This document shows, piece after piece, positions 1-2,196 of a stretch of 37,110 bases of DNA; position 1 is the first letter of the stretch, and the number at the start of each line of letters is the position of its first letter. The notes under the pieces were generated by a model, which saw only the letters and a list, made by a program, of their open reading frames with translations, was not told where the DNA came from and did not search any database. Position numbers and translations under genes: made by a program. The stretch is from Clostridia bacterium (GTDB lineage Bacteria > Bacillota > Clostridia > Lutisporales > Lutisporaceae), in assembly GCA_029256365.1 (NCBI GenBank), contig JAQSYB010000001.1, positions 1 through 37,110 on the forward strand, given 5' to 3'.

Positions 1-55
1 ATCATATTTGCATCATATAGCTAAGCTTACATTATTAATATTGTACATATATACC

Positions 56-271
56 GCAAATCTGACTGGGTATGCCCTGGCACAGTGGAATTACGCTTAG
101 CTGCTCTTTGCTGCTTGTAAGACTCAAAAAGTCCTACCGGCTCAAAAGGGACATCCTTGTCCCTTGAGCCGCCCTTGACCTCCTGCCAAGGATTACGGGC
201 TTTTTCAGCCTTGCTCGCAGAGAGCAGCATAAGCCTAATAACTATGCCCATGCATTCCCAGCTAGATTTGC
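56..271. repeat. Long imperfect palindrome, element 1 (MITE-like / structured), branched apex at 126-205
   Basis: Left end GCAAATCTGACTGGG (56-70) is matched by the inverted right end CCCAGCTAGATTTGC (257-271); the arms stay imperfectly complementary to the centre. Central helices: AAAAAGTCC(126-134)/GGGCTTTTT(197-205), GGCTCAA(139-145)/TTGAGCC(164-170), GGGACA(148-153)/TGTCCC(158-163), CCTTG(173-177)/CAAGG(187-191). ~306 bp direct-repeat offset to element 2. Confidence 0.85.
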
Positions 272-361
272 TTTACTTGAGTATAAACATATTTAATTAG
301 GTTCCCTTGTACGTCCACCAGTGAAATATGAGCATACTTTATTAAATACTACACATATACC

Positions 362-556
362 GCAAATCTGACTGGGTATGCCCTGCACAGAGGAATTACG
401 CTTAGCTGCTCTTTGCTGCTCGCAAGACTCAAAAAGTCCTACCGGCTCAAAAGCGCCCTTGACCTCCTGTCAAGGATTACGGACTTTTTCAGCCTTACTT
501 CGCAGAGAGCTGCATAAGCCTAATAACTGTGCCCAAGCATTCCCAGCCAGATTTGC
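362..556. repeat. Long imperfect palindrome, element 2; direct repeat of element 1 with one apex hairpin deleted
   Basis: GCAAATCTGACTGGG (362-376) versus CCCAGCCAGATTTGC (542-556). Apex outer stem AAAAAGTCC(431-439)/GGACTTTTT(481-489); perfect hairpin CCTTGAC-CTCCT-GTCAAGG (457-475). Compared with element 1, ~21 nt (GGACATCCTTGTCCCTTGAGC) are missing. Confidence 0.85.
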
Positions 557-615
557 TAAACTTTGAGTATAAACATAACTAATTTACGTCGTGTTGCGCG
601 TGCACATAGTATGAA

Positions 616-823
616 GAGGAATCATGCTTGTATGAGGCACAATTATGAGACTTGTATTTGTACTCTGTGAAATATTGTAGAAAAATCCGTAATTGGCGGC
701 AAGGATGCCGCCAGCGCCTCAACTGACAGGAGGTCAGTTTTGAGGCGGTAGGATTTTTATGCAATATAAGCAGCTAGTACAAAACAAGTCGAGTTCTTGT
801 GCAAAATACAAGCATGATTCCTC
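616..823. repeat. Long imperfect palindrome, element 3; different arms, related apex in opposite orientation
   Basis: 18-bp perfect terminal inverted repeat GAGGAATCATGCTTGTAT (616-633) / ATACAAGCATGATTCCTC (806-823). Apex: AAAAATCC(681-688)/GGATTTTT(751-758), GGCGGCA-AGGA-TGCCGCC (695-712), CGCCTCAA(715-722)/TTGAGGCG(740-747) with TT bulge (738-739), CTGAC-AGGAG-GTCAG (723-737). Confidence 0.9.
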
Positions 824-850
824 TCACTTCATCCTGTACGTCCTCCAAGT

Positions 851-896: not shown

Positions 897-2072
897 TTAT
901 CTCTCAATGACCACAGCGGTGCCCATACCGCCACCTATGCAAAGTGTAGCCAATCCATGCTTCGCATCTCTCTTCTTCATTTCATAGAGAAGTGTAATCA
1001 GTATTCTTGCACCACTTGCTCCAACTGGATGTCCCAGAGCAATGGCTCCACCATTTACATTTACCTTATCCATGTCAAAGCCCAATTCCTTTGCTACGGA
1101 CAATGCTTGCGCTGCAAATGCTTCATTGGCTTCTATTAGGTCTAAGTCCTTAAGCTCCAGCTTTGCTCTCTCAAGAGCCTTCTTAACAGCTGGTACAGGT
1201 CCTATTCCCATGATGCTTGGCTCAACACCTGCTGATGCATATCCTGATATTCTTCCTAGTACCTCTAAGCCTAATTCCTTTGCCTTATCTGCTGCCATAA
1301 TAACCAAGGCAGCTGCACCATCATTGATACCGGAAGCATTTCCTGCTGTAACTGTTCCATCCTTCTTAAAGGCTGGCTTAAGCTTTGCTAAGGATTCAAC
1401 TGTAGTACCAGCTCTTGGATATTCATCGGTATCTACTACTACATCCCCTTTTCTGGAGGATATGACTACAGGAACGATTTCATCCTTGAATTTGCCCTCA
1501 GAAACTGCTGCTACAGCCTTGTTTTGACTTGATGCAGCGAAGGCATCCTGCTCTTCTCTAGAGATATTATATTTTTCTGCCAAGTTTTCGGCAGTCATGC
1601 CCATATGGTAATTATTAAAAGCATCCGTTAGTGCATCATGTACCATTGTGTCGACAATTTCTCCATGACCCATTCTATAACCATTTCTTGCATTCTTTAA
1701 TACATAAGGTGCCTGGCTCATGTTTTCTGTACCACCGGCTACCACGATATCAGACTCTCCACTAATGATGGCCTGTGCTGCCAGCTGTACTGCCTTTAGT
1801 CCAGAGCCGCATATCATGTTGATCGTCATTGCAGGTTTTTCTATAGGAATTCCTGCTTTTACTGCAGCTTGTCTTGCCACACCTTGACCTTGTCCAGACT
1901 GCAATATGCAGCCCAATATAGTCTCATCAACCATTTCAGGCGTTATGCCTGCTCTTTTGATTGCTTCCTTTATGGTCAAAGCTCCTAAATCAACAGCCGA
2001 AACCCCTGACAAAGCTCCATTAAAACTACCTACAGGAGTTCTTGCTGCTCCAACAATTACTACTTCTCTCAT
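897..2072 (-). CDS. thlA: Acetyl-CoA acetyltransferase (thiolase)
   Basis: [23 protein letters not shown]..., [11 protein letters not shown] active-site Cys, [31 protein letters not shown] motifs. Start moved from 2159 to 2072 because GAGGAGG precedes this ATG. Confidence 0.95.
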
Positions 2073-2196
2073 ATTAGTCCTCCTCATTTCTTGTATTGTA
2101 ATGATAATATAGCAATAAGCATGCCACTTCCTTAGCACTTCCAAATTCACAGCTTTCAATCATACAAGCAATTCAATTGCTATATAAAGCCGAATA

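What the first reader, a model, noticed from the sequence alone, without database searches (positions are those of the whole stretch)
56..823. Three long-hairpin elements share a covarying branched apex
Each of three ~195-215 bp imperfect palindromes carries a central branched structure. Elements 1 and 3 (element 3 read as reverse complement) share: outer stem AAAAA(G)TCC/GGxTTTTT; strand TCCTACCG; a long hairpin whose base (GGCTCAA/TTGAGCC versus CGCCTCAA/TTGAGGCG) is followed by an AA bulge and an upper stem of unrelated sequence (GGGACA/TGTCCC versus CTGAC/GTCAG); a second hairpin of unrelated sequence (CCTTG/CAAGG versus GGCGGCA/TGCCGCC); then ATTACGG. Different sequence with the same pairing is compensatory change, pointing to selection on a folded RNA or extruded ssDNA/cruciform. 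I do not recognise a named family.
Basis: partly seen in the sequence, partly recalled or inferred. Interest (0 to 1): 0.82.

Follow-up and report, generated by a model that had tools for sequence, protein, structure and literature searches.

The report
Mobile elements carrying paired CsrA-type hairpins
The three hairpins are copies of a small mobile DNA element whose tip encodes a known but unexplained bacterial RNA fold (TwoAYGGAY) with two hairpins that look like binding sites for the global regulator CsrA, so jumping DNA may be spreading CsrA-binding RNA through these genomes.

Summary
Three long palindromes (about 44-298, 350-584, 615-824) share a branched apex; the second has lost one hairpin. 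The apex is a divergent TwoAYGGAY RNA (Rfam RF01731; 34.8 and 32.3 bits, cut-off 43), sense strand minus for elements 1-2 and plus for element 3. In 30 apices from 8 Clostridia families 17 of 19 pairs covary (92% of cells paired; shuffled 55%).

New here: (1) these are MITE-like mobile elements. In one relative's closed genome 13 of 17 full copies have target-site duplications (shuffles: mean 1, maximum 5). A precise empty site exists between two genomes of our family. Copies lie in random orientation to genes. (2) The fixed part is the two loops, CA(N)GGA(N)G: GGA in loop A of 126/141 copies, in loop B of 135/141. This is the CsrA/RsmE site, as Gardner & Eldai (2014) predicted. (3) The element tracks csrA: 36 of 41 carrier genomes have csrA against 102 of 352 others.

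Most likely a mobile element whose transcript binds CsrA. Identity and mobility are solid; CsrA binding is inferred; a trans 'sponge' role is speculative.

The parts
44..298 (-). Element 1: MITE-like repeat unit (palindrome 56-272); sense strand minus
   Evidence: direct repeats with element 2, fold z -9.8, RF01731 hit 85-244 minus
125..206 (-). Element 1 apex, TwoAYGGAY three-way junction
   Evidence: model R1 68.6 bits
172..192 (-). Element 1 hairpin A, loop AGGAG (GGA = 181-183 on minus)
138..171 (-). Element 1 hairpin B, ACAAGGAUGU loop (GGA = 154-156 on minus)
350..584 (-). Element 2: repeat unit (palindrome 362-556), truncated copy
430..490 (-). Element 2 apex; hairpin A at 456-476 kept, hairpin B deleted
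   Evidence: R1 29.2 bits with internal deletion
615..824 (+). Element 3: palindrome of another arm subfamily; sense strand plus
   Evidence: inverted repeat I1, fold z -15.8, RF01731 hit 665-776 plus
679..760 (+). Element 3 apex, TwoAYGGAY three-way junction
   Evidence: R1 77.1 bits
693..714 (+). Element 3 hairpin A, GCAAGGAUGC loop (GGA = 703-705)
715..747 (+). Element 3 hairpin B, ACAGGAGGU loop (GGA = 729-731)
897..2159 (-). Neighbouring thiolase (acetyl-CoA acetyltransferase-like) gene; the elements lie downstream of it; not part of the element
   Evidence: Thiolase_N/C, E 3e-109

Best explanation
Each element is a copy of a MITE-like, non-autonomous mobile DNA element of about 210-340 bp that is one long imperfect palindrome. 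Its apex is a divergent TwoAYGGAY RNA. SHOWN by sequence: dispersed multi-copy repeat, target-site duplications and an empty site in relatives, random orientation to genes, a covarying three-way junction, conserved CA(N)GGA(N)G loops in one or both hairpins, and presence almost confined to lineages with csrA. INFERRED: when a copy is transcribed, its long arms make a stable rod that displays two GGA hairpins a median 28 nt apart, which one CsrA dimer (two RNA-binding faces) can bridge. The module was probably selected for binding CsrA, either to control or protect the element's own transcript or as a dispersed CsrA-titrating RNA, and different MITE families kept it while changing their ends.
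For: RF01731 matches; covariation; GGA in loop A 126/141, loop B 135/141, and no parsed copy without either; GGA invariant in 22 distinct copies while the N positions beside it are highly variable; TSDs 13/17 vs shuffled mean 1.0, max 5; 26 left ends vs 0 control in G051; empty site in G003 for a G002 copy; random gene orientation; G.U > A.C on the sense strand; csrA in 36/41 carriers vs 102/352 non-carriers and 14/14 carrier families; own genome has fliW-csrA-flagellin with conserved CsrA; independent motif prediction in PMC4333381.
Against: No expression or binding data. Five carrier genomes show no csrA (G001, G013, G081, G163, G290), and GGA loops are intact in the four of these examined. 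In several families one loop is ACACGAUGU without GGA. The csrA association could reflect shared ancestry or lifestyle (motile Clostridia). The G.U excess is modest (57:43). No promoter or terminator of its own was shown, and no transposase partner was found.
Confidence: 0.62

Rival explanations
1. The folded apex is read as single-stranded DNA or cruciform by a transposase (as in IS200/IS605 or REP elements), and the GGA loops are transposase recognition marks, not CsrA sites.
For: The elements are mobile; strand-asymmetric hairpins are typical substrates of Y1 transposases (general knowledge); loops are invariant within subfamilies.
Against: G051 copies have TSDs of about 9 bp, which IS200/IS605 transposition does not make; the f1 copy at the empty site has at most 2-3 bp, so ends and probably transposases differ while the apex stays; G.U exceeds A.C on one strand, not expected for DNA; nothing in a DNA model predicts the csrA association.
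Confidence: 0.15
2. The palindromes are kept by DNA-level processes only (inverted duplication, hairpin-templated correction); the RNA has no role and the covariation is a by-product.
For: Arms over 100 nt differ between copies yet stay complementary within each copy, which DNA correction can produce; the G.U excess is small.
Against: The loops, which such correction would not conserve, are the most conserved part across families; G.U > A.C on one strand; csrA association.
Confidence: 0.15
3. TwoAYGGAY is a cis-regulatory element of neighbouring genes, as its Rfam type label says.
For: Rfam type label 'Cis-reg'; some copies lie close to genes.
Against: Upstream gene sense 62 vs antisense 58, downstream gene sense 53 vs antisense 70; many different neighbours; both orientations within 800 bp of the window; Weinberg et al. 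marked it probably not cis-regulatory.
Confidence: 0.05

Closest known systems
TwoAYGGAY RNA (Rfam RF01731; Weinberg et al. 2010, PMC2864571)
   Same: Same architecture: outer stem, two adjacent hairpins with AYGGAY-type loops, CGGU-like 3' junction; full-length model matches.
   Different: The window copies score 32-35 bits, below the cut-off of 43; some relatives have one loop without GGA. The family was described as an RNA, not as part of a mobile element.
CsrB/CsrC/RsmX/Y/Z CsrA-sponge RNAs of Gammaproteobacteria
   Same: Repeated GGA hairpins with the CANGGANG consensus able to titrate CsrA (works-like comparison only).
   Different: Two sites per unit instead of many, many dispersed copies, MITE-borne, no known promoter; no binding or expression evidence.
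Bacterial MITEs (terminal inverted repeats, target-site duplication, no gene)
   Same: Short, non-coding, inverted-repeat ends, duplications of the target, dispersed, foldable when transcribed.
   Different: Carries a conserved three-way-junction RNA module shared by families with different ends; partner transposase unknown.

Membership tests
TwoAYGGAY (RF01731) | Score at or above the Rfam gathering cut-off (43 bits) | tested here: not met
   34.8 and 32.3 bits in the window; met by same-family and same-genus relatives, e.g. G011 57.6 bits
TwoAYGGAY (RF01731) | Two adjacent hairpins with GGA-containing AYGGAY-type loops on a shared closing stem | tested here: met
   element 1 AGGAG and AAGGAU, element 3 AAGGAU and AGGAG; element 2 has one hairpin only
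TwoAYGGAY (RF01731) | Covarying structure shared with family members above the cut-off | tested here: met
   17 of 19 pairs with double-sided change in 30 sequences; one model R1 finds both
MITE | Dispersed near-identical copies without coding capacity | tested here: met
MITE | Terminal inverted repeats and target-site duplication | tested here: met
   G051: 13 of 17 copies. Not established for the window copies themselves
MITE | Empty sites in relatives | tested here: met
   G003 lacks the G002 C114 copy precisely; two further G002 sites lack it in G001
MITE | A related autonomous transposon with the same ends | tested here: not met
   none among 26 G051 left ends within 1.5 kb; not searched in other genomes
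CsrA-sponge RNA | CANGGANG hairpin sites | tested here: met
   strict CA(N)GGANG in loop A 121/141 and loop B 125/141
CsrA-sponge RNA | Host encodes CsrA | tested here: met
   own genome csrA beside fliW and flagellin; 36/41 carriers
CsrA-sponge RNA | Expressed RNA that binds and antagonises CsrA | not testable with these tools
   needs RNA-seq, CLIP or binding assays
IS200/IS605-type or REP element | No target-site duplication; hairpin ends recognised by a Y1 transposase | tested here: not met
   duplications present in G051; no transposase seen near the copies examined

The most novel reading that the evidence does not exclude
A self-spreading CsrA sponge: a mobile element family whose many dispersed copies together act as an RNA antagonist of CsrA in Clostridia, or which uses CsrA binding to control its own spread.
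Probability: 0.3. Interest if true: 0.82.

Novelty: new variant of a known kind. Interest (0 to 1): 0.6.

Why it matters
TwoAYGGAY has been an RNA without a known function since 2010. Showing that it is the conserved tip of mobile elements explains its copy number and scattered positions and argues against the Cis-reg label. The csrA co-occurrence turns a motif-based guess into a testable proposal. If CsrA binds it, transposition spreads binding sites of a global regulator, and Clostridia would have an RNA layer of CsrA control made of mobile DNA beside the protein antagonist FliW.

Tried and rejected
Rfam at the gathering cut-off gave no hit; only the permissive scan revealed RF01731. MIR6224 and other weak Rfam hits were dismissed as chance (E about 1 or more). 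Composite G002/G003 copies with extra upstream repeat were checked for an autonomous element and showed only about 240 bp of further non-coding repeat. Automatic TSD search by alignment in several families failed because flanks do not align; only G051, anchored on its exact ends, is used. A viral contig scan with an f1 pattern gave nothing. Paper searches found no report of TwoAYGGAY as a mobile element nor of a clostridial CsrA sponge. A cis-regulatory role was rejected on orientation. A terminator role was set aside: the U-run after the closing stem is common in f1 but absent in several other families.

Full report
WHAT WAS CHECKED. The window is the whole contig C46 of a 2.15-Mb draft genome, 69.5% complete. 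The three palindromes are real. Elements 1 and 2 are direct repeats; element 3 lies in the opposite orientation and belongs to another arm subfamily, with a close own-genome relative on contig C49. Element 2 has lost hairpin B.

NAME. Rfam at its cut-off finds nothing, but a permissive scan gives TwoAYGGAY (RF01731): element 1 minus strand 34.8 bits and element 3 plus strand 32.3 bits, E 0.001-0.005, full model length. In 22 genomes of the order (all one family) 15 have matches at E<=0.01 and 8 exceed the cut-off, with none in 14 control genomes. In 393 class genomes 35 match (E<=0.001) in 13 families. So the window copies are divergent members. Their below-threshold score is a tested, unmet criterion; relatives in the same genus that pass, and a shared model, bridge it.

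ANATOMY. In 141 of 151 copies an automatic parse found a three-way junction: closing stem, hairpin A, hairpin B with a small asymmetric bulge, closing stem (a few parses are wrong). In a 30-sequence alignment (A1) 17 of 19 hairpin pairs have double-sided changes and 92% of cells pair, against 55% shuffled and 43% or less when slid. The invariant or nearly invariant columns are mostly the loop letters CA.GGA.G of both hairpins. GGA is in loop A in 126/141 copies, in loop B in 135/141, and in no parsed copy absent from both; the A-to-B GGA spacing is 22-40 nt, median 28. Among 22 distinct copies of one subfamily the GGA letters never vary, while the N positions beside them are among the most variable of the element. 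This is the CANGGANG site of CsrA/RsmE (papers use that consensus), and Gardner & Eldai (PMC4333381) already proposed CsrA for this family. A recurrent variant loop, ACACGAUGU, replaces GGA in one hairpin in several families.

MOBILITY. In closed genome G051, 26 left ends were found, with none for the reversed-pattern control. Of 17 copies with both ends, 13 carry direct repeats of at least 7 of 8 bases at the boundaries, against a mean of 1.0 (maximum 5 in 2000 trials) when right flanks are shuffled. In the window's own family a copy in G002 (C114) is missing from otherwise near-identical DNA in G003 (C95), a clean empty site for an insertion of about 340 bp with at most a 2-3 bp duplication; two other G002 sites lack the element in G001. 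Copies about 90-97% alike stand at unrelated places. Neighbouring genes show no orientation rule: ++ 29, -- 33, +- 29, -+ 19. These are MITE-like elements. The two host families use different termini and different duplication lengths while keeping the apex, so the apex looks like a cargo module and not like part of one transposase's recognition system. Only two such families were tested and no transposase partner was found.

RNA OR DNA. Long complementary arms can be kept at DNA level, so mismatch types were compared. G.U exceeds A.C on the TwoAYGGAY strand: 641 vs 481 over whole palindromes, higher in 18 of 21 genomes; with the apex excluded and each context counted once, 348 vs 266, p=0.001. 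Symmetric DNA processes predict equality. The excess is modest: it supports some selection on the RNA strand but leaves room for DNA-level upkeep.

CsrA LINK. csrA (PF02599) is in 138 of 393 class genomes. Carriers by RF01731: 33 of 35 have csrA (Fisher 2e-14). Carriers by the apex model R1: 36 of 41, against 102 of 352 non-carriers (2e-13), and all 14 carrier families contain csrA+ members, out of 41 csrA+ families among at least 84 (about 1e-5). The figure of 84 families is a lower bound read from the handle numbers. Exceptions are G001, G013, G081, G163 and G290; GGA loops are intact in the four of these examined. In the window's family csrA and fliW are missing together from six drafts, but four of these have a FliG hit, one of them weak, so a lost contig is a fair explanation there. 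The window's genome has fliW-csrA-flagellin in order, and its CsrA keeps the residues equivalent to Leu4 and Arg44 of E. coli CsrA (residue roles from general knowledge).

MECHANISM. Shown: mobile repeat, conserved fold, conserved loops, csrA association. Inferred: transcription through a copy yields a rod with two CsrA-type hairpins able to hold one dimer. Whether this serves the element (control of its own RNA) or the host (dispersed titration of CsrA beside FliW) is open. CsrA binding is put at about 0.6 and a trans sponge role at about 0.3.

NOVELTY. The RNA family and the CsrA guess are known. The mobile nature, the empty sites and duplications, the random gene orientation and the csrA co-occurrence were not found in the literature searched, which covers open-licence papers only; the supplement of Weinberg et al. 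could not be read.

Noticed in passing
hairpin A or B loops in copies of families f1, f22, f23, f47 (e.g. L007, L135, L134, L172): The same one-base-shorter loop ACACGAUGU, without GGA, recurs in unrelated families, in either hairpin, while the other hairpin keeps GGA; a convergent variant with no explanation yet.
   Followed up: partly
L192, L186 and L177 (G051): Nested or hybrid copies: one 588-bp unit holds an extra TwoAYGGAY-like apex inside another, one has a foreign hairpin inserted, one has its interior inverted relative to the left end.
   Followed up: partly
L063, L077-L079, L083, L085, L087 (G002/G003): A subset of copies shares about 240 bp of additional non-coding, foldable repeat upstream (CTACAGGTTTGTAAAGTACTCCGACTGTAGGGGAAG...), a composite element.
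   Followed up: partly
L081 and L085 (G003): A REP-like GGGGACGTTTCTCCTGTCTC repeat sits beside or inside TwoAYGGAY copies.
   Followed up: no
L103, L108, L111 (G019) and window 44-824: Copies cluster in tandem or inverted arrays of two to four within about 800 bp, often of different subfamilies.
   Followed up: no
window 308-327 and 835-854: A 20-bp direct repeat (TGTACGTCC[A/T]CCA..) lies just outside element 1 and element 3; it may be a remnant end or a chance match.
   Followed up: no
G001, G013, G081, G163, G290: Genomes over 90% complete that carry the element but show no csrA; useful for testing whether loops decay after csrA loss.
   Followed up: partly
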